Below are positions 7,297 through 28,498 of a stretch of DNA of 64,000 bases, one piece after another. The stretch covers positions 19,047,686 through 19,111,685 of the forward strand of contig OU015527.1 in NCBI GenBank assembly GCA_907165065.1. Direction: 5' to 3'. Source of the DNA: Caprimulgus europaeus (taxonomy: Eukaryota; Chordata; Aves; Caprimulgiformes; Caprimulgidae). Every line of letters begins with the position of its first letter. The first letter of the stretch is position 1. The position numbers and the translations under genes are program-made. The notes under the pieces were generated by a model that was given only the letters and a program-made list of their open reading frames with translations, did no database searches and had not been told where the DNA came from.

Positions 7297-9670
7297 ATGC
7301 TCGCAGAGGCCAGGGAGCATTTGGAGGAGGACCTCCGTGCTGCTGGGCAGGAGTTTGGAGAGTGCTCACCAACGACCTGTTCCGCGTTGGCCGTGCGGTG
7401 GAAGGCCCTTCACTGGGAAGGTTCCCCACTGCTACAGGCAACAGAAGAAGCCATGAGTAATCAAGGAGCCAGGAGAGATTCTGTGCAGAGCTACGCACAA
7501 GTGGCAAGCTGCATAGAGCGTATGGTAGGTGTGGAGTAGTTCCTGCTGCACTGGGGCTGCAGACCCTGAGCAGAGCAGGTCTGAGCCCTTGCTCTTCTTT
7601 CTGCTTGCAGGACAAGAACTATCAAGCAGTGCGTCATGCCCTAGAGAAGCTGAATACTATGGTTGGTGTCCTCTCCTCTGCCCATGTCCCAGGCTGCATC
7701 GGCTGGGGCTAAGAGTGATGGTGACCTTATTAATGTTTATAAATATGTTAAGGGTGAATGTCTGGAGGATGGAGCCAGGCTCTTCTCAGTGATGTCCAAT
7801 GACAGGACAAGGGGCAGTGGGTGTAAGCTGGAACACAGGAGGTTCTGCTTAAACTTGAGAAAAAACTTCTTTCCTGTGAGGGTAACAGAGCACTGGGACA
7901 GGCTGTCCAGGGAGGTTGTGGAGTCTCCTTCTCTGGAGACATTCAAGACCTGCCTGGATGCCTTCCTGCGTGATCTCATCTAGGTGTTCCTGCTCTGGCC
8001 AGGGGGATTGGACCAGATGGTCTTTCGAGGTCCCTTCCAATCACTGATATTCTGTGATTCTGTGAGAGGTTTGAAGGGACCTTTGGAGGTCACCTTGTCT
8101 TGTCCAAGCTCCCCCTGCTCAAGGAGGGTCACCTGGTGCTGATCACCCAGTGACCACGGGCAGAAGTGAGACTGGGGGTGACATTTTCCCCAGGATATGT
8201 TGATGTCCATCACTTCCCCATGTCTGGACCCATGAGTTGCCCCATCTCCCAGTGCCCTGGGGCAGTGGGCTAGTGAGTGGGCATGGCCCTGGGGCTGGAG
8301 AGGTGTGAGGGTACCTAGGTCCCAGCCCAGCTGCACACATGATACGCCTGTTGTTTTGTAGGTGGAGAAGCGATATTTCCAGATGGCAGCTGAGCTGTGG
8401 CAGACTGACCGGGAGAACGAGGTAGCGCTGAAAGGGCCAGGGGAAAACGGGTGGGAGCGCGCGGGCTCTGGGGTGGGGAGTGTGGTGAAGGGTCGCAGCG
8501 GGCTCAGGTGCTCAGACTCTTCCTTCTTTCAGGTGGTGCAGCAAAAAATAAAGAAATTTGAACAAGCACTAGAGAAGGAAGAGGCCAGGTGAGTTGAGGC
8601 CTTCGCATCACACAAATGTCCCTGCAGCACGTGGAGTGATGGGGCTGCCACTGCTGGTGCCAGGCAATGGGGTGGGGGGAATATGCAGCACGTGTTGTGA
8701 CAGGGGAGCCGAATCCCTGCCTGGGTGGGGTATGTTTGGAAGGGGACACCCTGCGTGGCTGTGGAGGTCTGTCACACGTCCAACCAAGCCCTCTTGTTTG
8801 CAGGCAGCGGCAGAGGAAGCAGATGGCAGTGGAACGCAAGGCTATGCTGCGGGAGGTGGTGAAAGCGCAGATGGTAAGGAGGAGAGCCTGTGCCAGCCCC
8901 TGCCCTGGGCCTGGACAGCGTGGGTCTCCCTGGGGAGAGGGGTCCAGGGAGGTCACAGCCGCACATAGGCTATAGTCCTGCACAAGGCTGAGACCAGGGC
9001 ATCCTGCAACTGCAGGTGTCCTGCCCATGGGGCGGTGCTTGACCAGCATTGTTGCTCTGTGTTCACGTGCAGGATAGAGAGCTGCGGGCGAGGAGAAGGG
9101 GCTTCGTTTATTGGCTGCAGTGAGTATCCCCTCTGGGTCCCCTGTGCCCCGGGGCCCGCTCCCAGGCAGCAGGTGCGATGGGCCGGGTGCCTGCTCCAGC
9201 CAGCGGGGCTCACAAGTCCAGGCTGCTGGGGAGCTGCTGGCCGGCTGTGGGCTTTGCAGCTGGGAAGTGCGCAGTGTCACTTTTCCCTGGGCCCGGGTGT
9301 TTCCCCAGGCTTGTGGAATCTCCTGTCCCACCCTGCCTGAGGGAGCAGTGAGAACTGGCTGGGGAGACAGCCATGGGGCTCCCAGAACGGCCCCCTCCAT
9401 CCCACTGGCATGATGGGGTTGGGATGCATCCCCCCTGCCCTGTCCCCCATCCCTCTTCTGCCCCACAGGACACTCTGCCTGCTCTGCGTCTGCCTGCTGC
9501 TGGCTGTCAGCTTTGCTCTGGCTGCTGGGGTCCTCTATGCCTCCTGGTATGACCCAGAGCTCTTCTACCGCCTGCTGTTGCGTCTGCTGTCTGAGAAGAC
9601 CTACGTGAAGCTGGCGTACAGGCTAGGAAAGCTTCTCCCCGTGGTCAGCGAGGGGCTGCTGCCTTCTTGA
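7297..9670 (+). CDS. coiled-coil, C-terminally membrane-anchored protein gene, seven exons (copy 1)
   Basis: Seven segments join with consistent intron phases and GT/AG borders: 7297-7524 (left edge uncertain), 7611-7661, 8362-8421, 8533-8588, 8804-8873, 9073-9119 and 9469-9670 (TGA). The spliced product is about 235 residues. It is charged and probably helical ([43 protein letters not shown]), then has one hydrophobic segment ([20 protein letters not shown]) and a tail of about 40 residues ([20 protein letters not shown]). A cytoplasmic coiled coil with a C-terminal anchor is inferred. The architecture and length recall the TMCO5 family, which is a weak suggestion. An in-frame TAG at 7276 means the first exon starts after that point. 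No upstream exons or promoter are recognised, so even this copy may be a 5'-truncated duplicate. A CR1 lies in intron 2. Confidence 0.6.
7719..8066 (+). mobile_element. CR1 LINE 3' end inside intron 2 of copy 1
   Basis: The CR1 ORF2 C-terminus starts abruptly after the non-CR1 sequence ending near 7718 ([38 protein letters not shown]). It ends with the terminal ATTCTGTGATTCTGTGAGA at about 8049-8067. The same 3' end and downstream flank occur at 26500-26847. Over the first 140 bases I count 9 mismatches between the two copies. Across the following 1.85 kb there are about 20. Confidence 0.95.
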
Positions 9671-9698
9671 TCGTCCCTTTTGTGTTGGGTTTGTTAGG

Positions 9699-9718
9699 TG
9701 GAGTTCAGGATCTCATGT
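9699..9718 (+). mobile_element. CR1 fragment, left of a solo LTR
   Basis: GGAGTTCAGGATCTCATG matches the ORF2 region seen at 24604-24623 in the long CR1. It is the start of a 5'-truncated CR1 that continues after the solo LTR at 10876. The uninterrupted equivalent is at 28479-28498. Confidence 0.85.
9714..9718. repeat. target-site duplication CATGT (left) of the solo LTR
   Basis: A direct repeat of CATGT immediately precedes the LTR and recurs at 10876-10880. Comparison with the empty allele-like copy at 28494 shows that exactly these five bases were duplicated. Confidence 0.92.
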
Positions 9719-10875
9719 TGTATTGGGTTTGCATGGCAAGGTTTTTGGTAGCAGTGGGGGAGGGGACATGGGGTGGCTTCTGTGAGAGAAGCTGCCAGAA
9801 GCTTCCCCCATGTCCGACCCGACACAGCCAATGCCAGCGGCTACAGGAACGGACCCGCCGCTGGCCAAGGCCGAGCCAATCAGTAACGCCTCTGTGATAA
9901 CATAATTAAGAAAAAAAAAAAAAAAAAAAAGGAAGGGAGAAAAAAAAGCTGCACACTTTGCAGCGGGAGAGAGGAGTGAGAAGATGTAAGAGAAACAACT
10001 TCGCAGACACCAAGGTCAGTGAAGAAGGAGGGGGAGGATGGGCTCTGGCGCCAGAGCAGCGATTCCCCGCAGCCTGTGGAGAAAGACCATGGTGAGGCAG
10101 GCTGTCCCCCTGCAGCCCATGGAGTTCCATGGTGGTGCAGATGACCACCTGTAGCCCGTGGAGGACCCCACGCCGGAGCAGGTGGATGCCTGAAGGAGGC
10201 TGTGACCCCGCGGGAAGCCCGCGCTGGAGCAGGTTCCTGTCAGGGCCTGTAGCCCGTGGAGAGATGAGCCCACGCCGGAGCAGGTTTGCTGGCAGGACTT
10301 GTGACCCCGTGGGGGACCTGCGCTGGAGCAGTCCCTTCCTGAAGGACTGCACCCCATGGAATGGACCCATGCTAAAGCAGTTCGTGAAGAGCTGTCAGTC
10401 ATGGGAAGGACTCACGTTGGAGCAGTTGGTGGAGGACTGTCTCCCGTGAGAGGGACCCCACGCTGCTGCGGGGGAAGGAGACCTCCCCCTGAGGAGGAAG
10501 CAGCAGCAGAAACAACGTGTGATGAACTGACCCCAACCCCATTCCCTGTCCCCCTGTGCTGCTGGGGGGAGGAGGTGGAAAATCGGGAAAGAGATTAAGC
10601 CCGGGAAGAAGGGAGGGATGGGGGAGGTGTTTTAAGATTTGGTTTTACTTCTCATTCTCCTCTAATTTTGATTTGTAATAAAGTAAATTTGTTTTTTTTC
10701 CCCCAAGTCGAGTCTGTTTTGCCCGTGCCAGTAATTGGTGAGTGATCTCTCTCCGTCCTTATCTCCACCCACGAGCTTTTCGTTATAATTTTCTCCCCCT
10801 GCCCATTTGAGGAGGGGGAGTGATAGAGTGGGCTTTGGTGGGCATCCGGCCTCTAGCCAGGGTCAACCCACTACA
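9719..10875 (+). mobile_element. solo LTR of an avian ERV (ERVL-like), 1157 bp
   Basis: The element begins TGTATTGGG and ends ACTACA, with TG...CA termini. It is flanked by a perfect 5-bp direct repeat CATGT (9714-9718 and 10876-10880). The empty site is present in the second gene copy at 28494-28498, where CATGT occurs once. It has an A-run at about 9910-9930, a tandemly repetitive GC-rich middle (about 10090-10460), an AATAAA at 10677-10682, and a U5-like end sharing GAGGGGGAGTGATAGAGTGG with the fragment at 45129. There is no internal coding region, so it is a solo LTR formed by LTR-LTR recombination. A 5-bp duplication fits class III (ERVL) elements. Confidence 0.93.
10090..10460 (+). repeat. 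degenerate tandem repeats inside the solo LTR
   Basis: Units of about 55-65 bases recur about six times around a core such as CACGCCGGAGCAGGT or GCGCTGGAGCAG, each preceded by a CCCGTGGA-like block. This is an LTR-internal minisatellite. The long plus-strand frame across it (10129-10449) is a by-product of the repeat period and GC bias. Confidence 0.8.
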
Positions 10876-11080
10876 CATGTGGAAGGAACAGATTTCCAAG
10901 CAGAATTGCAACCCTGGACTTCAGGAGGGCCAACTTTGGCCTTTTCAAGCAATTGCTAGGGGAAATCCCACGGGAAAGGGTACTTGAAGGTAAAGGGGCC
11001 CAAGATAGCTGGTTAAAATTCAAAGACTGCTTCTTCCAAGCTCAAGATCAGAGCATCCCGACACGTACGAAGTCAAGGAC
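10876..11080 (+). mobile_element. CR1 LINE ORF2 fragment (right of solo LTR)
   Basis: The plus strand encodes a CR1 stretch (ATLDFRRANFGLFKQLLGEI, then RVLEGKG and FKDCFFQAQDQSIPTR). It matches 28499-28697 with only scattered mismatches. It stops after about 11080, where the sequence switches to unrelated GC-rich DNA, whereas the other copy continues to 29287. The right edge is therefore a deletion or recombination point. Confidence 0.9.
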
Positions 11081-11744
11081 GCGAGCCAGGGGAAAGGCCC
11101 TGTCGGATGGAGGCCGCAGCGACCCGGGCTGCCAACTGCTGAATGCGGCACCGCTGCCCGCAGCCGCTCAAAGGGCCGTAGCTGAAGCCCGTGGGTCACT
11201 GCCTGCCCGCCTGCCGTCTGCCCCAGGCCCAGCTTCCTGGTGTCCCTCTGCGTGCTGGCAGCGGCGGCTCTGGTGGCCATCTGTGACCACAGCTGGTGAG
11301 GGAGCCATCCCTGTCCTTCATCCAAATCTGTGCCCCTGTGTTGTGACTCCCATCCCATCTCAGCGGGTGGGGGGACTGAGTGCAGGGCTGCATGGTCCTA
11401 CTGTGGGTTAAACCACCACACCCTTCAGTAAAGACTTTTCTGCCTTCCCCTCCGTGTCCTTGGGCTGGTTTGTGGAGCGCTCACATGCGTGTGTGTGTCT
11501 GCACCTGCCCGCTGGGAGCACGTGCACAGCCTGGCTGCTGCTAGAACCAGGGGTGTGGTTAGGGTGGTCAAGGAACAGGCAAACCCCACAGGGAGACACC
11601 AACACGCGGCGCCCACGGTCGCTGCTGCTTGTGTGCCCAGTGGGTGCTGACAGCTGTTTCTCTGGTGGCTGCAGCTGGCCCCACATTAGCTCTTGGCGTC
11701 AGCCCCCGGGAGGTGACAGCCGTGTCACAGTGGCGGTGGTTGCC
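11081..11744. other. GC-rich unrecognised stretch, possible gene fragment
   Basis: At 11225-11303 there is an acceptor-like CTGCCCCAG, a short frame that includes a hydrophobic run (FLVSLCVLAAAALVAICD), and a donor-like CTGGTGAGG. It could be an exon of a membrane protein gene related to its neighbours, or chance. No continuous gene can be assembled. A short CA/GT-rich patch lies at 11486-11498. Confidence 0.3.
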
Positions 11745-11782
11745 GTTGGTGTCCTCTCCTCTGCCCATGTCCCAGGCTGCAT
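11745..11782 (+). repeat. 38-bp exact repeat of the start of intron 2 of the coiled-coil gene
   Basis: The 38 bases starting GTTGGTGTCCTC and ending GGCTGCAT are identical to 7662-7699, the first bases of intron 2 of copy 1, directly after its donor. This suggests a third, mostly lost partial copy of that gene. Upstream of 11745 I cannot find a match to exon 2. Confidence 0.75.
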
Positions 11783-11789
11783 TGGCCTT

Positions 11790-11970
11790 GACAGAGAGCT
11801 TTGCAAGCCCACCTGGAATTGAATCCAGCTAGGGATGCCAACGGCAACAAGAAGGGCTTCCCTAAATCCCTAAGTGACAAAGAGAGCACTACAGAAAATG
11901 TGGGCCCACTGCTGAATGAGGCTGGAGACCTAGTGATGCAGCACATGGAAAATGCTATGGTCCCAAATGT
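11790..11970 (+). mobile_element. decayed CR1 LINE ORF2 fragment
   Basis: The plus strand translates to a CR1-type stretch (DANGNKKGFPKSLSDKEST, ENVGPLLNEAGDLV, then a diverged MENAMV). It matches the NVGPLMNEVGALV region of the CR1s at 25073 and 28937. It is older and more diverged than those copies. Confidence 0.75.
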
Positions 11971-12039
11971 GTTGTCAAAACACTTCCTAACACACAGGGC
12001 TATCCCACTGCCTCTCGTCCTTTCCCGCTCCCTCTCCTT

Positions 12040-12265
12040 CCTTGCGCACCCCTTCTGCAGATTTTAGAGCCATCCACTGCAGCACACCCATTGTGGGAGC
12101 CTTCCCAGCACGTTTCCCTAATTGCAATGCCATCGTTTCCCAGCTGCACATTGGCTTCCAGCTCCTCCTGTTTGTTGCCCGTGCTGCGTGCATTGGTGTA
12201 GATGCACCTCAGTTGCATTATGATCCCACTGCTTTTTTTGAGGGAGAAACCCTAAATCCTGTGTG
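12040..12265 (-). mobile_element. decayed CR1 LINE, start of ORF2 (endonuclease)
   Basis: The minus strand encodes LRCIYTNARSTGNKQEELEA followed by a diverged IAIRETCWEGSHN stretch. This is the start of the CR1 ORF2 apurinic endonuclease domain (compare CLYTNARSGGNEQEELE at 23976). It is frameshifted beyond that. Together with 12600-12960 it may be one old minus-strand CR1 that includes both ORFs. Confidence 0.85.
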
Positions 12266-12599
12266 ACTGTTCTAAGGTGGTTCTGTGGTTTCCAGTGCAT
12301 TGACAGTCCGTGTGTCCTTGCTGCCCTGTGGATCTCCTTCCCCTGTCTGTCCTGACATAGCTAAGGTGCATTCATTGCTGCTCTGGTTGGCTTGGCTTTT
12401 TACCCTGGTGCTTTCACTTCACAGGTGTCACCACTATCGGCCCCATACCCCATCCTTGTCACTTGAAAGCTCACTTTGCCATATTTGCTAGCCTGTTGGC
12501 AAAGATTCCTTTGACTTTTCTACTCAAGTGCATCCTCCCTCTCCCTATTAGGTTACAGCCATCAAAGAACATCCCATGATCATGAAAGCCAAAACCCTG

Positions 12600-12960
12600 G
12601 CCATAGCACCAGCCGTGTAGTCAAGTGCTGATCTGCATGAGGCCTCTGCTCCTGCCTGAACCCCTTCCTCTAACTGGTAAAAGGGAGGAAAAGATAACCT
12701 GAGAACCAATCCCTTTCAATTGCACCCCCAGAACTTTATAGTCTTGTTTGATTCTGACCAAGTTCTGGCTTGCTGTGGCCTCATTCAGGTCCACACAAAG
12801 GAACAATAATGGGTAACAGTCCGTGTTTCTAACAAGTTGTGGCAGCCTCTCAGTGACACCCTGGGCACTAGCACCTAGAAGGCAGCAAACTTGATGTGAT
12901 TCCCTCTTCGACTGACAAATAGGTGCCTTGGTGTCTCTTAGCAGATGGTCACTCACTACG
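12600..12960 (-). mobile_element. probable CR1 ORF1 (esterase-type) remnant
   Basis: The minus-strand frame 12956-12621 contains IKQDYKVLGVQLKGIGSQVI followed by FSSLLPVRGRG and a GRSRGLMQI-like run. I recognise this as the pattern of the SGNH-esterase-like ORF1 of vertebrate CR1/L2 elements. It lies just upstream, in minus-strand order, of the ORF2 start at 12265-12040, as expected for a longer CR1. Stops and missing ends show it is dead. Confidence 0.55.
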
Positions 12961-12965
12961 AGCGC

Positions 12966-13700: not shown

Positions 13701-13906
13701 GGACATTACCGGGATTATTTTGAACTTGCCACAGCAATCAAGAAATAAGTCCTTAAAAGATGAGGAGAATGAGGAAAGCGATGGCCATATTGCTAAGATG
13801 TGTATTTTGGTATTCATGTCCCCAGTTTTTCCCTCCTCTGTGTCTGTCACCGCTGTCTCCAAATGCAGTGACGGGGTGTTAGCTACTTGGATCAGCTGAA
13901 ACAGCC

Positions 13907-14364
13907 ATGTGTTCTAGACTTTTTACAAGAAGAACGGGGGAGTTGATGGTATTAAGGAGGAGGAAGGTGAAAACATGTGGGGATTGTGGGAACGTATCTT
14001 GGCCTACCCTGAGAGGGTTATGGGAACTACGAGGGTACGTGTCTGGAGACACGAAAAGGCAAGAGTCAAAACCAGGGTGTCAGCAGCTGAGTCGACAAGA
14101 TATGAGGAGGGAGCCTTGAAATGTATCAAAAGATGGACTCTGGCAAGCAAACAATAAAGGACGCACGCAAAGTCTATCAGCCAACCGCTATGCAGAAAAA
14201 GGTGCGTGAACAGCTCACGAACAACTGAATTATCCAGTCATTGGAAACTGCTTCACGTGAACATGAAATTAATGATAGATAAACCTCTGCTTTTGCTTAA
14301 TAAAGCGTCTTCACTTATAACTCTTGTAGAGTTGTCTCAAGTCCGTATCTTCGCCGCCAACAAA
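13907..14364 (+). mobile_element. possible solo LTR
   Basis: The stretch begins TGTTCTAGAC and ends GCCGCCAACA. It has AATAAA at 14299-14304 about 60 bases before its end and a small inverted motif (CTCTTGTAGAG) in the presumed U5. That layout is LTR-like, but I cannot find a convincing target duplication and no second copy is in the window, so the borders and the call are tentative. Confidence 0.4.
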
Positions 14365-17237: not shown

Positions 17238-17242
17238 ATTTC

Positions 17243-17260
17243 TGGTGCCGTGACTCGGAT
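17243..17260 (+). other. primer-binding site, tRNA-His type
   Basis: TGGTGCCGTGACTCGGAT is the 18-base sequence complementary to the 3' end of histidine tRNA, the same primer type that names HERV-H. It follows the LTR end after a 5-base spacer, which fixes the LTR border and orientation. Confidence 0.9.
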
Positions 17261-17634
17261 AAGGAACGGTGGGCATCTGTCCTCCGGGGAGGCGCCCCAT
17301 GGCAATCCGCGGCCCCGCGACTGATAGCCTACCTCAACCTTACCGACGAACCTAAATTCTAGAATAATGAGCAAAGGAGAAACCGGTAAAATCCCATAAA
17401 ATTCTGTGCACGGGAGTCCCGACGAAGACGCAGGACGCGTAAGTATATTGCGAATTTGTTCGCGGGTTTGCCATTCGGGCGGGATTGGGTTTCCTGGATT
17501 ATAACGAGTGAGAGGTTCGATATACTGAACCAAGCGAGTGTGGACCCTTAAGTACTGCGTTTCCCATCTCCCGCGAGGGACTGGGCCAGGAACAAGGGGG
17601 GCGAGTGAGTGTGTGTTTGTGGATAATCCAGAAG
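17261..17634 (+). other. retroviral leader between primer-binding site and gag
   Basis: About 375 bases without a protein frame. A splice donor and packaging signal are expected in such a leader. Several GT-containing donor candidates occur (for example CGCGTAAGTA at about 17438-17447 and GGCGAGTGAGT near 17600), but I cannot assign one. Confidence 0.55.
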
Positions 17635-19053
17635 ATGGGAGCGAAGGGCAGCAAGCCTTCGACTCCCATGGGAGGGGTACCCACTGTACCTAAGAATACC
17701 CCTCTGGCATATATCTTAGACAATTAGAGATATTTCCCTGGAACTCTAGGGAAAGATAAGCAGAAGATGATAGAATATTGTACTAAGATATGGGGAGGGA
17801 AGAAGATTTCTAAAAATGTCTTTTGGCCAGTCTATGGGTCAGAAGAAGATTGGGTGAGACAGCAATTAAACCTCTGGGTTAATAATAAAAAACCCCTTAA
17901 CCCGGAGGAGAGTCAATATGCGGGAATGTGGCTCGAGAAACCGAGAGCTAGACTTTACCCGCTGAATGAAATAAAAACTAAACAAAGGAAAAAGAAGGAA
18001 GAGCTAGACGAAACTCTTCTAACCCCCCCTCCTTACATTCCTCCTCCTGTTCCCGCAGCCCCTCCAGAGGTCCCCAGAGCGCCCACTCCCCCACCAGAAT
18101 CAGAACAAGGGTCTCCCCCTCCTCCTAGACGCGTGACTAGAAGTCAAAAAGGGGCAGCTCAGATGTATCCTCTAAGGGAAATGCCCATGGGGGGACCCCA
18201 ACCTGTGATTGGATATATTTCTGTACCCCTAAGCTCGGCAGACCTACGAGATTTTAAAAGAACCGAGATGGGAAACCTAATTGAGGACCCACTCGGAGTG
18301 GCAGAAAGATTAGATCAATTTTTGGGACCAAACCTTTATACTTGGGATGAGATGCAATCTATCCTCAGTCAATTATTTACTACCGAGGAAAAAGACATGA
18401 TTAGACGAGCAGGAATGAGATTGTGGGATGCTCAACATGCCCAGGGACCCCTAGCAGATATTAAATGGCCACTCCAAAAACCTGATTGGAATAATCAGGA
18501 TCCAGTGCATAGAATTCATATGCAGGACCTGAGAACTATAGTAATTCAGGGGATTAGAGAAGCAGTACCCCGTGGCCAGAATATCAATAAAGCATTTAAT
18601 GAAAGGCAAAAGAAAGATGAAAGCCCTACTGAGTGGCTGGAACGACTGAGGAAAGCCCTTCAGCTGTACTCCGGGGTAAATCCAGACGACCCTTTAGGGC
18701 AAGCGCTCCTCAAAACTCAGTTTGTGGCAAAATCATGGGAAGATATCAGAAGGAAGATTGAAAAGTTAGAAGACTGGCAAGATAGAGGGTTGGATGAATT
18801 ATTGAGGGAAGCTCAGAAAGTCTACGTAAGGCGAGAAGAAGAGAGCAGCAAACGACAAGTAAAAATGATGGTAGCAGCAGTCAGAGAGGATCGCAAAGGG
18901 CGGACTGGTGAACACAGGTCTACTGGAGCGAAACAAGGGAATGTAGTAGTAAAGAAAGAACAGGGATGTTGTTTTTACTGTGGGAAGAAGGGACACATAA
19001 AGAAAAATTGCAGAGAAAGGATCAGGGATGAGGAAGTATTGAAAACGGAATAG
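17635..19053 (+). pseudogene. gag: endogenous retrovirus gag, interrupted near its start
   Basis: The frame starts with an ATG at 17635 followed by Gly and a basic, Ser-containing N-terminus, the usual myristoylated matrix start. An in-frame amber codon sits at codon 31 (17725-17727). After it the frame is open from 17728 to 19050. Visible parts, in order, are a Pro-rich linker with a PPPY late-domain motif (about 18025), a capsid region of gammaretroviral p30 type, and one CCHC zinc knuckle (CFYCGKKGHIKKNC, about 18970-19011). A single knuckle and a gag-pol pair in one frame separated by TAG (19051-19053) are gammaretrovirus-like, implying stop-codon readthrough to make Gag-Pol. The early stop makes this copy defective unless that codon is bypassed. 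Confidence 0.88.
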
Positions 19054-21381
19054 GAGAGTCAGGGGCTCTATATTTTAGGGGACCGGAGTCATCATGAGCC
19101 CTTGATAAAATTAAAAATAGGTCCCCATAAACAAGAGTTCACCTTTTTAGTAGACACTGGGGCTGAGAAATCGACTATTTGGCAAATACCTGAGGGATGT
19201 AAAATTTCCCCTGAAAAAGTACAGGTAATTGGGGCAAAAGGAGAACCCTTTAAAGTAAGCAAAATCAAAAATGTGGTATTCGAAACTGAAAATAAATTTG
19301 GAATGGGTGAACTCTTGCTCGTCCCTGAAGCAGAATTTAATTTGTTAGGACGAGATTTAATTGTTGAATTACAATTAGAAATTAAAGTAGAAAATCAAGA
19401 GCTAACAGTGTCTGCTTATTCTTTGACCGTGGATGATCAAAGACAAATTAACCCCGATGTCTGGTGCTCTCCGGACACAATTAGTAGACTGGAAATCCCA
19501 CCGATTAAAATCCAAATTTCCGAACCCCACATACCTGTGAGGGTAAAGCAATATCCCATATCCCTAGAAGGACGGAGAGGATTAAAACCAGAAATTGATC
19601 GATTGTTAGCACAAGGAATCTTAGAGCCTTGTATGTCACCCTTTAACACCCCCATTTTGCCTGTAAGGAAACCAAATGGGAAATATCGACTCGTACATGA
19701 TTTAAGGGAAATAAACAAAAGAACTATCACCCGGTTCCCTGTAGTAGCAAATCCATACACACTGTTAAGCAAGATAGGACCCCATAACTCCTGGTATAGT
19801 GTGGTTGATTTAAAGGATGCCTTTTGGGCCTGTCCACTGGCAGAAGAATGCCGTGATTATTTTGCCTTTGAATGGGAAGACATAGAGACAGGCCGTAGAC
19901 AGCAATTAAGATGGACTGTGCTCCCCCAAGGGTTCACTGAATCCCCTAATCTGTTTGGACAGGCCCTGGAAGAGCTCTTAAAGGAATACCAGGTACAAAC
20001 GGGAAATGTGCTGTTACAGTATGTAGATGATCTGCTCATAGCAGGGGACAATAAGGAAGATGTAAGAAAAGAAAGCATTCGACTCCTAAACTTCCTTGCA
20101 CAAAAGGGACTACGGGTATCACAAGAAAAGTTACAATTTGTGGAGGAAAAAGTGAAATATTTGGGACATTATTTGTTTAATGGCAAAAAGATATTGGATC
20201 CAGAGTGCATTAAAGGAATTCTGGAATTACCTATGCCTGTCACTAAAAGGCAAATACGGCAGGCATTAGGACTATTTGGGTATTGTAGGCAATGGATAGA
20301 AAACTACAGCTTTAAAGTTAAATTCCTATATGAACAGCTGTCTAAAGACAAAATACCCAAATGGACCCCCCAGGATCAAGAGCAGTTTGCCAGTCTCAAA
20401 AGGGAGCTAAGTGAAGCACTGGTTTTAAGCCTACCAGATTTAAAGCGGCCATTCCATTTATTTGTTAACATACATGAAGGAACGGCATTCGGAGTATTAA
20501 CTCAGGAGTGGGCCGGACAAAAGAAACCGGTAGCATATCTGTCAAAGCTGTTGGACCCTGTGAGTAGGGGTTGGCCGAGTTGTTTACAGATCATTGTTGC
20601 TGCTGCCTTATTACTTGAGGAAACGAATCGCATTACCTTCAATGGAGAAGTTGTCTTATATGCGCCTCATAACATCAGGGGAGTGTTACAACAAAAAGCA
20701 GAAAAATGGCTTACAGATAGCCGATTATTAAAATATGAGGGAATACTTATAGAATCCCCTAAACTATCTTTGAAAACTATTGGAGCAGTTAACCCCGCTG
20801 AATTTTTGTACCCAGGAGAAGGTAATGAACTATTACATAATTGTTTCCAAACAATTGAACAGCAGACACGCATTAGACCAGACCTAGAAGAAGAAGAACT
20901 ACAATGTGGGGAAGTATTATTTATAGACGGATCATCACGGATAGTAGAAGGTAAACGATTGTCCGGATATGCCTTCGCTAAGTTGGAAAAAGGAGAATTT
21001 AAGATAATAGAATCAGGCCCCCTGAGTGCCAGCTGGTCGGCTCAAGCCTGTGAGCTGTATGCATTGTGGAAAGCATTAGTATCACTGAAGGGAAAGGATG
21101 GAACTATATATACAGACTCACGCTATGCGTTTGGAGTAATACACACTTTTGGAAAAATATGGGAGGAAAGAGGATTTGTTAACTCACAGGGAAAAGAACT
21201 GATACACCCGGAATTAATGCGGCGAGTTTTGGGGGCATTGAAAGTGCCGAATAAAATAGCAGTTGTACATATAAAGGGACACCAGCGAGGTACAAGTTAT
21301 CAAGTTAGGGGAAATAATGCAGCTGATACAGAAGCAAAACGAGTGGCAGGCAATTATAATACGATTTTGACGATACAATAA
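19054..21381 (+). CDS. pol: endogenous retrovirus protease, reverse transcriptase and RNase H (pol, first part)
   Basis: Open in the gag frame from the gag amber codon to a TAA at 21379-21381 (about 775 codons). Protease has the aspartic active site DTGA (19153-19164). Reverse transcriptase has LPQGFTESPN and the catalytic YVDD (20020-20031). RNase H has a FIDGSS start (Asp at 20926-20928) and later TDSRYAFG and a HIKGH.R histidine region. The domain order and the readthrough-type start fit gammaretrovirus-like class I elements. No stops or frameshifts interrupt this part, so the copy is relatively young. The TAA between RNase H and integrase is in the same frame as the integrase start and breaks the polyprotein. 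Confidence 0.93.
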   Translation, partial: ESQGLYILGDRSHHEPLIKLKIGPHKQEFTFLVDTGAEKSTIWQIPEGCKISPEKVQVIGAKGEPFKVSKIKNVVFETENKFGMGELLLVPEAEFNLLGRDLIVELQLEIKVENQELTVSAYSLTVDDQRQINPDVWCSPDTISRLEIPPIKIQISEPHIPVRVKQYPISLEGRRGLKPEIDRLLAQGILEPCMSPFNTPILPVRKPNGKYRLVHDLREINKRTITRFPVVANPYTLLSKIGPHNSWYSVVDLKDAFWACPLAEECRDYFAFEWEDIETGRRQQLRWTVLPQGFTESPNLFGQALEELLKEYQVQTGNVLLQYVDDLLIAGDNKEDVRKESIRLLNFLAQKGLRVSQEKLQFVEEKVKYLGHYLFNGKKILDPECIKGILELPMPVTKRQIRQALGLFGYCRQWIENYSFKVKFLYEQLSKDKIPKWTPQDQEQFASLKRELSEALVLSLPDLKRPFHLFVNIHEGTAFGVLTQEWAGQKKPVAYLSKLLDPVSRGWPSCLQIIVAAALLLEETNRITFNGEVVLYAPHNIRGVLQQKAEKWLTDSRLLKYEGILIESPKLSLKTIGAVNPAEFLYPGEGNELLHNCFQTIEQQTRIRPDLEEEELQCGEVLFIDGSSRIVEGKRLSGYAFAKLEKGEFKIIESGPLSASWSAQACELYALWKALVSLKGKDGTIYTDSRYAFGVIHTFGKIWEERGFVNSQGKELIHPELMRRVLGALKVPNKIAVVHIKGHQRGTSYQVRGNNAADTEAKRVAGNYNTILTIQ

Positions 21382-22537
21382 GTACCTGTTAGTAAAAATT
21401 TGAGCTTTGAGTTTGCAGAAAAAGAAAAGCTAGAACAAATGGAAGCTAAGGAACAAGATGGTAGGTACATATTGCCAGATGGGAGGGAAGTCTTGCCAAA
21501 AGGCATAGCACTCAAAATATTTTCCAAAATACACAGCAAAACACACTGGGGAACCCAGGCATTAGTTGATCATTTCAATCAACAGTTTGCCTGTATAGGC
21601 GTATATAACGTAGCAAAGACAGTCACGGCAGCCTGCGAGACCTGTCAAAAGGTTAATCGAAACAACATGAGACAAAAAACCTCTTGGAGGACGTTCCCCA
21701 GCATACAGACCTTTCTCACACATACAAGTGGATTTTACTGAATTACCTAGGGTAGGGCGTTTCAAATATCTATTAGTAATGGTGGACCATTTAACACATT
21801 ATGTTGAGGCTTTTCCTACCTCCAGGGCAACTGCTAACCAAGTTACTAAAGTGTTACTTGAACATATTATACCTCGATATGGAGTACCTGAAGTAATCAA
21901 CTCAGACAGAGGAACACACTTTGTGTCAAAAATTATCAAAGATCTAACCGAAAGCTTGGGTATTAAGTGGGAATACCATACACCATGGCATCCACAAAGT
22001 TCGGGAAAAGTTGAAAGAATGAATGGAGAAATCAAAACTATTCTGACTAAATTAATGATAGAAACCAGATTATCATGGATTAAGTGCCTACCCATGGCAT
22101 TATTAATTATCAGAACCAGGCCCCGAGCAGATGTGGGAATATCAGCGTTTGAAATGGTGTATGGAATGTCCTATAGAATTGAAAATCCACAAACAAATGT
22201 TTTAATTCGAGACCATGTGATTAACGAATATGTTTCACAATTAGCAGAACATCGTAATAAGCTTTGGGAACACGGATTGATTGTGCAACGACCTCCACTG
22301 GACTTAAAAATTCATAATATCAAACCCGGGGATTGGATACTGATTAAAGTGTGGAAGGAAAAGACCCTCAAGTCCAATTGGGAGGGACCGTATCTTGTTT
22401 TGCTTACAACAGAAACAGCTGTTCGGACTGCTGAGCGTGGATGGACTCATGCTAGTCGTATTAAAGGCCCAGTGACGAGACCCCAGTGGAAAGTAATCAG
22501 TACTCCAGGTGACACCAAGATAACCCTGAAAAGATAA
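21382..22537 (+). pseudogene. pol: endogenous retrovirus integrase (pol, second part), frameshifted
   Basis: The integrase continues in the pol frame after the TAA at 21379. It includes the zinc-binding HHCC domain (IHSKTHWG, then CETCQKVN). At about 21680-21730 the reading frame changes, and the rest (to the TAA at 22535-22537) lies in another phase. The catalytic triad is intact: Asp at 21785, Asp at 21905 and Glu at 22013, with 35 residues between the last two. The C-terminal domain (PGDWILIKVWKEK.L and W.GPYLVLL) is present. The stop and the frameshift make the copy defective. Confidence 0.9.
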
Positions 22538-22677
22538 TGATAGAGACTTTATTCGAACACTTTGTTGTGTTGCCTTCTGGTATAAAGTGTGTATTGCTAT
22601 TTTTATTTGCAATAATAATTTCTTTGTTCATTTATTATATATGGAAATGTACAAAGTGGGGTAGGAGAAATTGTTAG
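22537..22677 (+). CDS. small putative one-pass membrane protein between pol and env
   Basis: A 46-codon frame whose ATG shares one base with the integrase stop (TAATG). It encodes a short acidic N-terminus, a hydrophobic stretch of about 20 residues (CVLLFLFAIIISLFIYYIW) and a basic Cys-containing tail (KCTKWGRR). It is not part of pol or of a recognisable env. Simple gammaretroviruses have no gene here, because env normally overlaps the end of pol. It could be a real accessory peptide, a remnant of a longer gene or chance. I know of no homologue. Confidence 0.4.
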   Translation: MIETLFEHFVVLPSGIKCVLLFLFAIIISLFIYYIWKCTKWGRRNC

Positions 22678-22681
22678 ACAT

Positions 22682-22828
22682 ATGCAGCCACACAATATAA
22701 AATACAGAGACCATACTGATGTAAATAACATATGCACCTTGGATATAAGAATCAGGTGTAATGATTTGACCTGCAACTGTTATCCATTTACTTGTTTTAG
22801 GTGTAAGGTATGCCAGGATAAATGGTGA
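22682..22828 (+). CDS. small cysteine-rich putative protein between pol and env
   Basis: A 48-codon ATG-to-TGA frame with seven cysteines, six of them packed in 19 residues (CNDLTCNCYPFTCFRCKVC). That is far denser than expected by chance in AT-rich DNA. The arrangement could bind zinc. It directly follows the small membrane-protein frame with only 4 bases between. No homologue is recognised, and expression is unknown. A passing resemblance to Cys-rich retroviral transactivators is only an impression. Confidence 0.35.
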   Translation: MQPHNIKYRDHTDVNNICTLDIRIRCNDLTCNCYPFTCFRCKVCQDKW

Positions 22829-22859
22829 ACACACTGTAAATATGGATACCCTCCAATAG

Positions 22860-23306
22860 GAGTTTATACACATTGTTGGAAAAATCCAAAGAACTCTCAC
22901 TGAGTGGAAATTGGAACAATTAGAACAAGAAATAATTTGGAGATCCCATGAGTGGTGGGAAATTTTTGCCAAAGGAATAAAACCCCAATATTATTGTTAT
23001 CATTCAAACGAACCAGTCCCCTTTGTAGCTGAAATCTTGGATATGAAGTGCAGAAGGGAAGTACTAACTGTGTCTTGCTTTATCCCATTAGTTAAAGCTG
23101 CAAAGTGGGGAGCCTATATAAACAGGCAGAAAGCCCGAAACAGCTGTTCTCCTGAAGAATTCCCTTGCTGCCGAGAAGATGGTACACCCCGTGACTCGAA
23201 GCAACCGAGTCGACGGGCGAGGCAGAGGAGGAACAAACTGTGGAGAAAAGAACCAGAACAATGGGACGCAAAAGCAGCAATGGTCGAACTTCCCCAGGAC
23301 TGGTAA
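22860..23306 (+). CDS. open frame with Arg-rich motif, overlapping the start of env
   Basis: A stop-free stretch of 149 codons in the third phase with no early ATG; the first is at 23043. It would need splicing or belong to a longer ancestral frame. It contains EWKLEQLEQEIIWRSHEWWE near the start and a strongly basic run (SRRARQRRNKLWRK) at about 23204-23245, which overlaps the env leader in another phase. Arg-rich motifs of this kind bind RNA or act as nuclear signals in retroviral regulatory proteins. That reading is inference, since basic runs can also arise when one frame shadows another. Confidence 0.3.
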   Translation, partial: EFIHIVGKIQRTLTEWKLEQLEQEIIWRSHEWWEIFAKGIKPQYYCYHSNEPVPFVAEILDMKCRREVLTVSCFIPLVKAAKWGAYINRQKARNSCSPEEFPCCREDGTPRDSKQPSRRARQRRNKLWRKEPEQWDAKAAMVELPQDW

Positions 23307-23750
23307 AAATATACTTAAATTGACAAAATTAACAAACACCCTTTTTCCTGGTATACTGTTAATTTTGTTATTAATAATAGCCCAAACAAAAGGAGGAAAC
23401 CCACATGAACCATTTAAGTGGGAATTAATATCTTGGGAAGGAACGAGAACAATAGCCACCTTTAGCAACCCAGGACCACCTGAATTCGTAGTGAAACTTT
23501 GTGATTTAGTACCAATACCTTGTGAAAAAGGACCTCCATTTTATATATGCCCGGCCTCTGGACAGCCTTACTGTAATTATCCCAGACACTATTATTGTGG
23601 TTATTGGGGATGTGAAACAATAGCCTCGGGCTGGACAGTAAAGGCTCCTGATAAATATATAAAAGCAACCTGGACTCCTGACAGATGTATACCTGAACAA
23701 ATAGGTGTAGATCTTACAGGTCTACGTGACGTGGACTATGTACCTTCACG
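23179..23750 (+). pseudogene. env: endogenous retrovirus env, N-terminal part only
   Basis: The frame starts at an ATG at 23179. It has an unusually long polar leader of about 53 residues, then a hydrophobic signal segment (FPGILLILLLIIAQ), then the start of a surface subunit (NPHEPFKWELISWEG) with several Cys-Tyr and Cys-Trp motifs. The rest of the surface subunit, the transmembrane subunit and the 3' LTR are absent. At about 23700-23780 the sequence becomes CR1, and the frame happens to stay open into CR1 until 24246. This copy cannot encode a functional envelope. Confidence 0.8.
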
Positions 23751-23759
23751 TGACAAGGA

Positions 23760-26700
23760 AGTTTGTACCCGCATCATTTTGCCTATCTCACAGGGGCAAA
23801 AGGAGGCTGGGGCAGGAATTGGCAGGGCTCATTTGGAGAGCTTTAAACTAGACGTGAAGGGGGAAGGGGTCACAGCTGGGCTTGTGCCAGTGGGGCAGCA
23901 CTCTAGAATTGATGAAGGCCGGGAGGCCTCCCACCCCCCTAGGCTGAAACTGGTGCACTTGGCTCGCTCCCTGCAATGCCTGTACACCAATGCACGCAGC
24001 GGGGGGAATGAGCAGGAGGAGTTAGAAACCCGTGTTGGGTCAGGGGATGATGATCTGGTGGCAGTTACAGAGACATGGTGGGACAGCTCACATGACTGGA
24101 ATGTGGCCATGGATGGCTCTGTCCTTCTCAGGAAAGACAGGCCAGCAAGGCGAGGTGGTGGAGTTGCTCTTTACGTGAGAGAGCAGCTGCAGTGTATTGA
24201 GATCTGTCCAGGGCGGATGAGGAGCGAGTGGAGAGCCTGTGGGTGAAAATCAAGGGGCAGGCTGGTAGGGTTGATACCGTTGTGGGTGTCTATTACAGGC
24301 CACCAGATCAGGGTGAGGAAGTTGATGAGGGCTTCTACAGGCAGCTGAGAGCAGCCTCGCAATCACAGGCCCTGGTTGTTGTGGGGGATTTTAACTACCC
24401 AGATATTTGCTGGAGGGACTACTCAGCCAGCCACCCACAGTCCAGGAGGTTCCTCCAGTGCATCGATGATAACTTCCTGATGCAAATGGGGGATGAACCA
24501 ACCAGGAGGGGAGTGACGCTGGATCTCATCCTCACTAACAAGGAGGGTCTGGTTGAGACTGTAAAGGTTGAGGACTGCCTGGGCTGCAGCGATCATGAGA
24601 TGGTGAAGTTCAGGATCTCATGTGGCATAAGCAGAATTACAAGTAAAATTGCAACCCTGGACTTCAGGAGGGCCAACTTTGGCCTTTTCAAGCAATTGCT
24701 AGGGGAAATCCCAAGGGAAAGGGTACTTGAAGGTAAAGGGTCCCAAGATAGCTGGTTAGCATTCAGGGACTGCTTCTTCCAAGCTCAAGATCAGAGCATC
24801 CCGATATGTAGGAAGTTAAGGAAGGGACCCAGGAGACCTGCTTGGTTAAACAGGGAACTGCTGGGCAAACTCAAGTGGAAGAGGAGAGTTTACAGATCAT
24901 GGAAGGAGGGGGCTGGCCACTTGGGAGGAATATAAGGATGTTGTCAGAGGATGTATGGAGGCAACTAGGAAAGCAAAGGCCTCCTTAGAATTAGATCTTG
25001 GCAGGGGGGTCAAGGACAACAGGAAGAGCTTCTTCAAATACATGGCAAATAAAGCCAATGTTAGAGGCAATGTAGGCCCACTGATGAATGAGGTGGGTGC
25101 CCTGGTGACAGAAGATACAGAGAAGGCAGAGCTATTGAATGCCTTCTTTGCCTCTGTCTACTCTGCTGGAAGCTGTCCTGAGGAGCTCGGTACCCTGGAG
25201 ACCCCAGAGGGAGTCAGGACAATGGAGGAGTTTGCCTCAGTTGATGAGGACTGGGTCAGGGACCAATTAAGCAACCTGGACATCCACAAATCTATGGGTC
25301 CAGATGGGATGCACCCACGGGTGTTGAGGGAGCTGGCTGAAGTTCATTGCTAGAGCACTCTCCATCATCTTTGCTAAGTCGTGGGGAACGGGAGAGGTGC
25401 CTGAGGACTGGAGGAAAGCAAATGTCAGTGCAATCTTCAAAAAGGGCAAGAAGGAGGACCCGGGTAACTACAGGCCGGTCAGCCTCACCTCCATCTCTGG
25501 GAAGGTGATGGAATGACTTATCCTTGGTGCCATCTCTAGGCATATCAAGGATAAGAGGGTCATTAGGGGCAGTCAGCACGGCTTCACCAAGGGGAAGTCG
25601 TGCTTGACCAACCTACTGGACTTTTATGAAAACACAACGAGGTGGCTTGATGATGGCAGAGCAGTGGATGCGGTCTATCTTGATTTCAGCTGTCTCCCAC
25701 AGTGTCAAATGCCTTGACACTGGATCTCATCCTCACTAAATCCTTGCTGCCAAATTGAGGAAGTGTGGATTAGATGAGCAGGTAGTGAGATGGACTGTGA
25801 ACTGGCTGGTGGGAAGAAGCCAGAGAGTGGTGGTCAATGGGGCAGAGTCTAGTTGGAGACCTGTGTCTAGTGGAGTCCCTCAAGGGTCGGTACTAGGACC
25901 AGTACTATTCAATATATTAATCAATGACCTGGATGAGGGAACAGAGTGCACTGTCAGCAAGTTTGCTGGTGACACAAAGCTGGGAGGAGTGGCTGACACA
26001 GCAGAAAGCTGTGCTGCCATCCAGAGAGACCTGGACAGGCTGGAGAGCTGGGCAGGGAAAAACTTGATGAAATATAATAAGGGCAAGTGTAGGGTGTTGC
26101 ACCTGGGCAGGAACAACCCCAGGTTCCAGTATAGGTTGGGAGATGATCTACTAGAGAGCAGTGTAGGGGAAAGGGATCTGGGAGTCCTGGTGGACAGCAG
26201 GATGACCATGAGCCAGCAGTGCCCTTGTGGCCAGGAAGGCAAATGGCATCCTGGGGTGCATTAGAAGGGCTGTGGTTAGTAGGTCAAGAGAGGTTCTCCT
26301 CTCCCACTGCTCTGCCCTGGTGAGGCCACATCTGGAATATTGTGTCCAGTTCTGGGCCCCACAGTTCAAGAAGGACAGGGAACTGCTTGAGAGAGTCCAG
26401 TGCAGAGCCACCAAAATGATGAAGGGAGTGGAGCATCTCCCTTATGAGGAAAGGCTGAGGGAGCTGGGTCTTTTTAGCTTGGAGAAGAGGAGGCTGAGAG
26501 GGGACCTTATTAATGTTTATAAATATGTAAAGGGCGAATGTCAGGTGGATGGAGCCAGGCTCTTCACAGTGATGTCCAATGATAGGACAAGGGGCAATGG
26601 GTGTAAGCTGGAACACAGGAGGTTCTGCTTAAATTTGAGAAAAAACTTCTTTCCTGTGAGGGTAACAGAGCACTGGGACAGGCTGCCCAGGGAGGTTGTG

Positions 26701-26850
26701 GAGTCTCCTTCTCTGGAGACATTCAAGACCCACCTGGATGCCTTCCTGCGTGATCTCATCTGGGTGTTCCTGCTCTGGCCAGCGGGATTGGACCAGATGG
26801 TCTTTCGAGGTCCCTTCCAATCACTGATATTCTGTGATTCTGTGAGAGGT
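23760..26850 (+). mobile_element. long CR1 LINE, near-full ORF2 with multiple breaks
   Basis: The left border with env is approximate. Visible ORF2 parts are the endonuclease (CLYTNARSGGNEQEELE, VTETWWDSSHDW, VVGDFNYPDICWRD), the linker, and the reverse transcriptase ([46 protein letters not shown]). The C-terminal region ends with the ATTCTGTGATTCTGTGA terminus at 26830-26847. Breaks are a frameshift near 24235, a stop and frameshift near 24930, a frameshift near 25345, a rearranged patch at about 25685-25745, and a frameshift near 26220. The RT catalytic FADD reads FAGD at 25962-25973. It cannot be autonomous. Confidence 0.93.
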
Positions 26851-28498
26851 TTGAAGGGACCTTTGGAGGTCACCTTGTCTTGTCCAAGCTCCCCCTGCTC
26901 AAGGAGGGTCACCTGGTGCTGATCACCCAGTGACCACGGGCAGAAGTGAGACTGGGGGTGACATTTTCCCCAGGATATGTTGATGTCCATCACTTCCCCA
27001 TGTCTGGACCCATGAGTTGCCCCATCTCCCAGTGCCCTGGGGCAGTGGGCTAGTGAGTGGGCATGGCCCTGGGGCTGGAGAGGTGTGAGGGTACCTAGGT
27101 CCCAGCCCAGCTGCACACATGATACGCCTGTTGTTTTGTAGGTGGAGAAGCGATATTTCCAGATGGCAGCTGAGCTGTGGCAGACTGACCGGGAGAACGA
27201 GGTAGCGCTGAAAGGGCCAGGGGAAAACGGGTGGGAGCGCGCGGGCTCTGGGGTGGGGAGTGGGGTGAAGGGTCGCAGTGGGCTCGGGTGCTCAGACTCT
27301 TCCTTCTTCCAGGTGGTGCAGCAAAAAATAAAGAAATTTGAACAAGCACTAGAGAAGGAAGAGGCCAGGTGAGTTGAGGCCTTCGCATCAAACAAATGTC
27401 CCTGCAGCACGTGGAGTGACGGGGCTGCCACTGCTGGTGCCAGGCAATGGGGTGGGGGGAATATGCAGCACGTGTTGTGACAGGGGAGCCGAATCCCTGC
27501 CTGGGTGGGGTATGTTTGGAAGGGGACACCCTGCGTGGCTGTGGAGGTCTGTCACACGTCCAACCAAGCCCTCTTGTTTGCAGGCAGCGGCAGAGGAAGC
27601 AGATGGCAGTGGAACGCAAGGCTATGCTGCGGGAGGTGGTGAAAGCACAGAGGGTAAGGAGGAGAGCCTGTGCCAGCCCCTGCCCTGGGCCTGGACAGCG
27701 TGGGTCTCCCTGGGGAGAGGGGTCCAGGGAGGTCACAGCCGCACATAGGCTATAGTCCTGCGCAAGGCTGAGACCAGGGCATCCTGCAACTGCAGGTGTC
27801 CTGCCCGTGGGGCGGTGCTTGACCAGTGTTGTTGCTCTGTGTTCACGTGCAGGATAGAGAGCTGCGGGCGAGGAGAAGGGGCTTCGTTTATTGGCTGCAG
27901 TGAGTATCCCCTCTGGGTCCCCTGTGCCCCGGGGCCCGCTCCCAGGCAGCAGGTGCGATGGGCCGGGTGCCTGCTCCAGCCAGCGGGGCTCACAAGTCCA
28001 GGCTGCTGGGGAGCTGCTGGCCGGCTGTGGGCTTTGCAGCTGGGAAGTGCGCAGTGTCACTTTTCCCTGGGCCCGGGTGTTTCTCCAGGCTTGTGGAATC
28101 TCCTGTCCCACCCTGCCTGCGGGAGCAGTGAGAACTGGCTGGGGAGACAGCCATGGGGCTCCCAGAACGGCCCCCTCCATCCCACTGGCATGATGGGGTT
28201 GGGATGCATCCCCCCTGCCCTGTCTCCCATCCCTCTTCTGCCCCACAGGACACTCTGCCTGCTCTGCGTCTGCCTGCTGCTGGCTGTCAGCTTTGCTCTG
28301 GCTGCTGGGGTCCTCTGTGCCTCCTGGTATGACCCAGAGCTCTTCTACCGCCTGCTGTTGCGTCTGCTGTCTGAGAAGACCTACGTGAAGCTGGCGTACA
28401 GGCTAGGAAAGCTTCTCCCCGTGGTCAGCGAGGGGCTGCTGCCTTCTTGATCGTCCCTTTTGTGTTGGGTTTGTTAGGTGGAGTTCAGGATCTCATGT
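26635..28498 (+). repeat. segmental duplicate of 7855-9718 (about 99 % identical)
   Basis: With a constant offset of 18780, bases 7981-9713 and 26761-28493 differ at about 18 positions and have no gaps. Left of about 26635 the CR1 sequences diverge (9 mismatches in 140 bases), then the flanks are unrelated. On the right both continue into the same CR1, which a solo LTR interrupts in copy 1 only. Confidence 0.95.
27142..28450 (+). pseudogene. coiled-coil, membrane-anchored protein gene, copy 2, 5' exons missing
   Basis: It holds exons 3-7 of the gene at 7297-9670: 27142-27201, 27313-27368, 27584-27653, 27853-27899 and 28249-28450, with all GT/AG sites kept. There is one residue change near the end of exon 5 (Met to Arg, 27652) and one in exon 7 (Tyr to Cys in the segment after the membrane anchor). 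Exons 1 and 2 are absent because the left side of the duplicate is CR1 joined to a provirus. Without a start it is probably a pseudogene, unless driven by the upstream retroviral or CR1 sequences. Confidence 0.75.

What the first reader, a model, noticed from the sequence alone, without database searches (positions are those of the whole stretch)
7719..28498. Two gene copies joined to different flanks inside the same CR1: signature of CR1-mediated ectopic recombination
Copy 1 (7855-9718) and copy 2 (26635-28498) differ at about 1 % and share a CR1 3' end in the same intron. Upstream of the point where identity drops (9 mismatches in 7719-7860 versus 26499-26640), copy 1's CR1 ends after 140 bases against intron DNA. 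Copy 2's CR1 instead continues for about 2.9 kb to a retroviral env. A simple insertion cannot give one CR1 insertion two different lengths. A crossover or gene-conversion edge inside CR1 at about 7855/26635 explains it, and also explains the lost 5' exons of copy 2 and the lost 3' half of the provirus.
Basis: partly seen in the sequence, partly recalled or inferred. Interest (0 to 1): 0.75.

Follow-up and report, generated by a model that had tools for sequence, protein, structure and literature searches.

The report
Gene copy fused within a CR1
In a bird-like genome, one of several copies of a little-known gene has lost its first exons, most likely because two look-alike mobile-element (CR1) copies recombined; the kind of event is already known, and here its junction can be read base by base.

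Summary
Copies 1 and 2 align ungapped with 30 mismatches in 1,999 bases, 9 of them in 7722-7854, and copy 2's CR1 runs 2.85 kb further left. The window's own genome shows which state is old. Copy 1's short CR1 is an ordinary 5'-truncated insertion with a GAGAG-type target duplication. Two other copies share it, two lack it (empty site), and one is uninformative. Copy 2 is therefore the recombinant: another CR1 up to 26634, then the gene's CR1, in register. Best reading: a homologous CR1 x CR1 joint that removed copy 2's 5' exons, most likely a deletion between direct repeats.

Corrections. (1) The mismatch step alone is weak inside the CR1 (p = 0.12); structure and shared alleles carry the case. 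(2) The lost 3' part of the provirus is probably a separate event: it ends at 23776, 2.86 kb from the joint, and beside copy 3 what is probably the same CR1 runs further 5' to an LTR. (3) Homology does not end at 9718/28498: a 1,157-bp solo LTR interrupts copy 1.

The locus is a CR1-rich duplication cluster with several non-homologous edges. New example, known mechanism.

The parts
7611..9670 (+). Copy 1 of a TMCO5/TMEM191-like gene: 3' coding exons at 7611-7661, 8362-8421, 8533-8588, 8804-8873, 9073-9119, 9469-9670; one more likely exon within 7282-7520
   Evidence: Splice signals read by eye from the sequence and frames; Pfam TMEM191C E=1.9e-6 and TMCO5 E=5.4e-4, both under curated cut-off; 18 protein relatives, named after birds
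7716..8062 (+). CR1a: ordinary 5'-truncated CR1 insertion in the intron, target duplication (G/A)AGAG
   Evidence: Empty site at 6.456 and 6.481 Mb; same short form in copy 3 and at 7.286 Mb
9697..9718 (+). CR1b start, first part (second CR1, just past the gene)
   Evidence: 28477 in copy 2 matches CR1 from 24602 on; absent at 6.456/6.481 Mb, where homology ends at 9692-9693
9719..10875 (+). Solo LTR-like insertion (TG...CA, 1,157 bp) flanked by CATGT; absent from copies 2 and 3
10876..11080 (+). CR1b, continuation, cut at about 11080
   Evidence: Matches 28494-28698
11085..11743 (+). DNA that, in whole or part, lies upstream of the gene in the 7.28, 6.456 and 6.481 Mb copies; here it follows copy 1's CR1b (tandem-duplication-type joint, shared with copy 3)
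11742..11786 (+). About 45-bp second copy of intron 7662-7706 at the joint to unrelated DNA (11787 onwards)
17238..23776 (+). Provirus interior (gag, pol, start of a putative env), 3' part missing; LTR ends at 17237
   Evidence: Gag_p30, RVT_1, RNase_H, rve, MLVIN_C; 13 of 13 listed relatives of the env piece stop matching at 23776
23781..26634 (+). R2: long CR1 that forms the left part of the hybrid
   Evidence: 23781-24668 differs by 19 of 888 from the CR1 beside copy 3, the first of 39 other listed places but by a small margin; 24900-26660 has no listed relative above 93%
26635..26652 (.). Likeliest interval of the recombination joint (7855-7872 in copy 1)
   Evidence: Copy 2 departs from CR1a through 7854 and shares copy-1/3-lineage letters from 7873; in register with other CR1s
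26635..28476 (+). Copy 2: 3' part of CR1a plus the gene's 3' exons; 5' exons missing
28477..29280 (+). CR1b of copy 2, longer than in copy 1, ended by a joint with 9-bp microhomology (CTGGAGGAA)
29272..50285 (+). Right flank, colinear in blocks (about 90-98% alike) with DNA downstream of the gene at 7.3 Mb

Best explanation
Copy 2 is a truncated gene copy whose left edge is a homologous joint between two CR1 copies in the same orientation: R2 (23781-26634), lying after the RING-gene/provirus block, and CR1a, the short CR1 in the gene's intron. Shown: CR1a was first a short insertion; copy 2 has it fused in register to another CR1; its original left target site and 5' exons are absent. Inferred: R2 and CR1a were direct repeats on one chromosome in a tandem gene cluster, and recombination between them (unequal crossover or single-strand annealing) deleted the DNA between, including copy 2's 5' exons. 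The missing provirus end and the right edge of copy 2 come from separate non-homologous or microhomology joints.
For: CR1a has a target duplication in copy 1 and at 7.286 Mb and an empty site in two copies. In 7722-7854 copies 1, 3 and 7.286 Mb differ from each other by 1-3 of 133, copy 2 from each by 8-9 of 133. At 5 of the 8 sites there where copy 2 departs from the CR1a majority it has the commonest letter of the other CR1s, at 3 a rare one. Right of the joint copy 2 shares letters seen only or mainly in copies 1 and 3 (7873, 7897, 8014, 8043). 39 of 40 other listed matches to 24900-26660 run across the joint in one alignment (they end 26 bases past it), and CR1s at window 5165-5833 and 41038-41483 and at 7.299 Mb align from left of the joint to the CR1 3' end. 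R2 and CR1a have the same orientation. Copy 2's right flank lies, in the same order and orientation, about 10 kb beyond the gene at 7.3 Mb, so copy 2 looks like the resident copy that lost its front.
Against: The step inside the CR1 alone is not significant (p = 0.12; 264 of 1000). Left of the joint copy 2 also shares with CR1a five letters that are not the commonest among the other CR1s (7728, a tie, 7747, 7758, 7802, 7846), and there it is nearer CR1a (6-7%) than the three other window CR1s compared (9-10%): either the two CR1s are of one subfamily or the exchange is patchy. Right of the joint copy 2 departs from all three CR1a copies at 7951, 7952, 7982 and 8003, at 7951 with the general CR1 letter, so the edge could lie further right; decay of one CpG could explain 7951-7952. 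R2's own 3' end and flank were not found: nothing above 93% for 24900-26660 (40 of 10,717 candidates scored). No reciprocal product and no intermediate with copy 2's 5' exons was seen. The CR1 end at 4167-4473, which might have been R2's 3' end, differs by 9 of 97 from R2 there and does not fit.
Confidence: 0.7

Rival explanations
1. One-sided homologous insertion: the block 11787-R2 was captured into the intron of the second gene copy during repair of a break. Its right end was joined by CR1 homology, its left end without homology at 7706/11787.
For: Seen in native gene coordinates, the second unit reads 11085-11743, 7662-7706, block, 7855 onwards: the two edges of the block are only about 148 bases apart.
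Against: Copy 3 shares the left joint but not the right one, so the left joint most simply came first. No donor copy of 11787-16740 was listed beyond copy 3; other matches were a dispersed repeat and RING-family paralogues at 80-85% (40 of 4,435 candidates scored).
Confidence: 0.15
2. Replicative template switching: copy 2 (26635-29280) is a templated insert copied from another gene copy, entered through CR1 homology and left through 9-bp microhomology.
For: The right edge has the microhomology CTGGAGGAA; small filler pieces (about 45 bp at 11742, 15 bp in copy 3) are seen in the cluster.
Against: The flank beyond 29272 follows this very gene in the same order and orientation at 7.3 Mb, which a random template switch would not predict.
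Confidence: 0.1
3. Assembly join inside the CR1.
For: The joint lies in a high-copy repeat; reads could not be examined.
Against: No N in the window; the window lies inside an 82.6-Mb contig of a 121-contig assembly; copy 2 has 9 private substitutions outside the CR1, so it is not a duplicate of copy 1 made by the assembler.
Confidence: 0.06
4. The long CR1 is the original insertion and the short one in copy 1 arose by deletion.
For: None found.
Against: Short form shared by copies 1, 3 and 7.286 Mb with target duplication, and empty sites in two copies; 8-9 mismatches in 133 between the two forms.
Confidence: 0.02

Closest known systems
LINE-LINE non-allelic homologous recombination (known in mammals for L1; recalled, no call)
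   Same: In-register fusion of two LINE copies in direct orientation, loss of the DNA between, one hybrid LINE left
   Different: Here the element is avian CR1 and the shared tract is short: CR1a is only about 347 bases
CR1-psi in parrots (PMC8854603; passages with the searched terms seen)
   Same: The authors say that deletion by recombination between CR1-psi copies may have contributed to exon losses
   Different: There it is offered as a possibility; here one joint with target duplication and empty sites can be read. The CR1 subfamily of this window was not determined
Chicken avidin gene family (PMC1082904; passages and cited titles seen)
   Same: Clustered avian gene copies with CR1 elements nearby; a cited title names copy-number change by unequal crossing-over
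   Different: In the passages seen, no CR1 is shown as the crossover site

Membership tests
Homologous recombination between LINE copies | Joint in register between two copies of the element | tested here: met
   39 of 40 other listed CR1 matches cross the joint in one alignment; two window CR1s and one at 7.299 Mb align across it to the CR1 3' end
Homologous recombination between LINE copies | Left and right parts derive from different insertions | tested here: met
   Structure: target duplication, empty sites, shared short form; allele pattern with some contrary sites. The mismatch step alone is weak
Homologous recombination between LINE copies | Both parental junctions found | tested here: inconclusive
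   CR1a's intact form found in three copies; R2 matched only at its 5' part beside copy 3; R2's 3' flank not found
Homologous recombination between LINE copies | Reciprocal or intermediate product | not testable with these tools
   Would need population data or related birds; the genome tool says this genome has no relatives here
CR1 insertion by retrotransposition (CR1a) | 5' truncation, ATTCTGTG-type 3' end, short target duplication, empty site | tested here: met
   (the typical 3' end is recalled)
Gammaretrovirus-like provirus | gag, pol, integrase domains and LTR | tested here: met
   Gag_p30, RVT_1, RNase_H, RVP, rve, MLVIN_C; LTR end and a primer-binding-like stretch after 17237 (tRNA-His type is recalled)
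Gammaretrovirus-like provirus | env | tested here: inconclusive
   TLV_coat E=0.22, under cut-off
TMCO5 / TMEM191C protein family | Pfam score above curated cut-off | tested here: not met
   28.5 against 32.7 and 19.8 against 32.2 bits on the 3' exons alone. For it: 2 of 18 protein relatives carry the TMCO5 domain (PF14992) in the precomputed list. Resembles the family; not filed as a member

The most novel reading that the evidence does not exclude
Probability: 0.25. Interest if true: 0.55.

Novelty: new member of a known kind. Interest (0 to 1): 0.34.

Why it matters
CR1-driven recombination in birds has been proposed by association (for example in parrots, PMC8854603). Here one joint can be polarised inside a single genome: paralogues supply the empty site, the short insertion and the hybrid. 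It shows how a gene copy can lose its front through a few hundred bases of shared CR1, and within one locus it separates a homologous joint from several non-homologous ones.

Tried and rejected
Rejected: the long CR1 as ancestral; one crossover explaining both the exon loss and the provirus loss; 4167-4473 as the 3' end of R2 (9 of 97 differences; no target duplication seen). Tried without gain: a look for target duplications around the provirus LTR by eye: none fits either possible LTR start. Rfam: 0 matches at gathering score. Order of splitting by shared substitutions is weak: 2 sites for copies 1+3, 1 for 1+2, 1 for 2+3. The reading C37 = Z and C36 = W is inference from size and CR1 richness, not tested. 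No age is given, because no rate was tested.

Papers: five searches around CR1 and recombination gave 9, 5, 19, 0 and 10 papers, one on transposable elements and non-allelic recombination in birds gave 29, one on TMCO5 gave 0. Two papers were opened, for passages only; for the others only the listed titles and abstract starts were seen. I make no claim that such a joint is unpublished.

On the second check I lowered the main confidence from 0.72 to 0.70, because five letters that copy 2 shares with CR1a left of the joint and the small margin had been left out.
Full report
What is there. The window lies at 19,047,686-19,111,685 of contig C37 (82.6 Mb) of a genome of 1.18 Gb in 121 contigs; CR1 content and the protein relatives point to a bird. 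The gene stretch 8070-9690 has seven near-full matches, all on C37: copies 1 and 2 in the window, copy 3 on the minus strand at 19.138 Mb, and more distant copies at 6.456, 6.481, 7.286 and 7.334 Mb (40 of 52 candidates scored, the other matches short). The 3' exons encode a coiled-coil protein with a membrane segment (my reading) that resembles TMCO5/TMEM191C but scores under both Pfam cut-offs. A protein search listed 18 relatives named after birds: 17 are called uncharacterised, one dynactin subunit 2-like; 2 carry the TMCO5 domain in the precomputed list.

The observation. Copies 1 and 2 align without gaps over 7720-9718 / 26500-28498 with 30 mismatches. Nine fall in 7722-7854 and 21 after it. 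Left of 7720 the sequences are unrelated: copy 1 has intron, copy 2 has more CR1. A change-point test finds the step in the whole block (2 of 1000 shuffles reach it) but puts its best position at 8004. Inside the CR1 alone it is not significant (264 of 1000 for copies 1/2, 136 of 1000 for copies 3/2), and the control pair copy 1 / copy 3 shows none over the block (269 of 1000). Density alone therefore does not place the edge.

Which state is old. At 6.456 and 6.481 Mb the intron reads straight through where CR1a sits; in copy 1 and at 7.286 Mb the CR1 is flanked by (G/A)AGAG. CR1a (7716-8062) is an ordinary 5'-truncated insertion of about 347 bases. Copies 1, 3 and 7.286 Mb carry the same short form with the same left intron flank; the 7.334 Mb copy starts at 8166 and is uninformative. 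Copy 2 lacks the left flank and the left half of the duplication, so it is the derived, recombinant copy.

Where the joint is. In 7722-7854 the three CR1a copies differ from each other by 1-3 of 133, copy 2 from each by 8-9 of 133. Compared with eight other CR1 3' ends (6-7 of which cover this part), copy 2 has the commonest letter at 5 of the 8 sites where it departs from the CR1a majority and a rare one at 3. From 7873 on it shares letters seen only or mainly in copies 1 and 3 (7873 C, 7897 G, 8014 C, 8043 A). This gives 7855-7872 as the likeliest interval. Contrary sites: left of the joint copy 2 shares with CR1a five letters that are not the commonest elsewhere (7728, a tie, 7747, 7758, 7802, 7846), which a common subfamily or a patchy exchange would explain; right of it copy 2 departs from all three CR1a copies at 7951, 7952, 7982 and 8003, at 7951 with the general CR1 letter (a decayed CpG at 7951-7952 could explain that pair). 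The fixed-difference counts are 7 of 135 left, 4 of 207 in the CR1 right, 10 of 1635 beyond; left against CR1-right gives p = 0.12.

Homology or not. Of 40 other listed matches to 24900-26660, 39 run across the joint in one alignment, though only to the query's end 26 bases on (40 of 10,717 candidates scored). CR1s at window 5165-5833 and 41038-41483 and at 7.299 Mb align across it to the CR1 3' end. So the two CR1s meet at the same element position. A joint made without homology would rarely do so (inference).

The partner CR1 (R2). R2 runs from 23781 to 26634. Its first 888 bases differ by 19 from a CR1 beside copy 3. That place is first of 39 others listed, but by a small margin: 97% over 888 bases against 96% over 920, 1501 against 1496 bits. 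CR1a itself shows 5 of 205 differences between copies 1 and 3, so 2.1% fits one insertion carried along by duplication, though the differences are uneven, 0.4-4.4% per 250-base bin. The case for one insertion rests mainly on position: in both places it follows the same block and LTR in the same orientation. The 3' half has no listed relative above 93%, so R2's original 3' flank is not found.

The provirus. Next to copy 3, this CR1 continues further 5' through ORF1-like sequence and meets the end of an LTR that corresponds to the window's LTR ending at 17237 (the ORF1 label is recalled from CR1 structure). In the window gag, pol and a putative env start lie between that LTR and R2. In 13 of 13 other listed places the env piece stops matching at 23776; four bases separate it from CR1 at 23781. 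The 3' loss is thus at a non-homologous edge 2.86 kb from the CR1 x CR1 joint.

The far side of copy 2. Copy 1's second CR1 (CR1b) is interrupted by a 1,157-bp TG...CA element with a CATGT duplication, absent from copies 2 and 3, then cut at about 11080 and joined to 11085-11743, DNA that lies in whole or part upstream of the gene at 7.28, 6.456 and 6.481 Mb. That is what a tandem-duplication joint looks like, and copy 3 shares it. Copy 2 keeps CR1b to 29280 and then joins, over CTGGAGGAA, to DNA which at 7.3 Mb lies about 10.2 kb beyond the same gene in the same order and orientation. So copy 2 looks like the resident copy that lost its front, and copy 1 like the added one (inference).

Other edges. 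I count eight at about 4166, 7276, 11080, 11743, 11786, 23776, 26634 and 29280; the one at 4166 could also be a plain truncated CR1. Five of the eight touch a CR1, but only 26634 is in register. The locus is therefore not purely a product of CR1 homology.

How it most likely happened. Shown: short insertion first; hybrid CR1 in copy 2; left target and 5' exons gone; provirus edge elsewhere. Inferred: R2 and CR1a stood as direct repeats in a tandem cluster and recombined, deleting what lay between. Copy 3 shares the left joint 11743/11787 but not the right one, which favours deletion after the block was in place over one-sided insertion.

Known or new. Recombination between LINE copies is a known mechanism (recalled), and CR1-linked exon loss by recombination has been suggested in parrots (PMC8854603, passages seen). 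This is a clear new example, not a new kind.

Noticed in passing
G000 C37:7286104-7298751 and 7323136-7335807 (L016-L019, L026): Inverted repeat (palindrome) with about 12.6-kb arms, 97.9-99.7% alike by block, each arm holding a copy of the gene and CR1b; spacer about 24 kb, most of it homologous to window 29272-50285.
   Followed up: partly
window 9719-10875: Solo LTR-like element in copy 1 with a 5-bp CATGT duplication; copies 2 and 3 show the uninterrupted sequence.
   Followed up: yes
window 15331-16203 and 6126-6548: A RING-finger frame and a related piece 84% alike over 123 bases, of a family with further copies on C37 at 26-34 Mb; copy 3's neighbour keeps that family's flank beyond the 7276 edge.
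   Followed up: partly
window 25690-25740: Inside R2 a short stretch looks inverted (by eye), and a 25-base near copy of 24514-24538 sits at 25715-25739.
   Followed up: no
window 11742-11786: About 45 bp copied from intron 7662-7706 at a joint; suggests template switching.
   Followed up: partly
window 28638-28734 against C37:7287800: CR1b of the 7.286 and 7.334 Mb copies lacks about 95 bases here and is only 90% alike beyond it, against 96% before it: possibly another CR1-internal joint.
   Followed up: no
G000 C37:19132277-19133170 and 19140962-19141746 (L011, L012): The joint R2(24668)/4470 occurs twice beside copy 3, the two CR1 pieces differing by 3 of 785: a recent local duplication.
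   Followed up: partly
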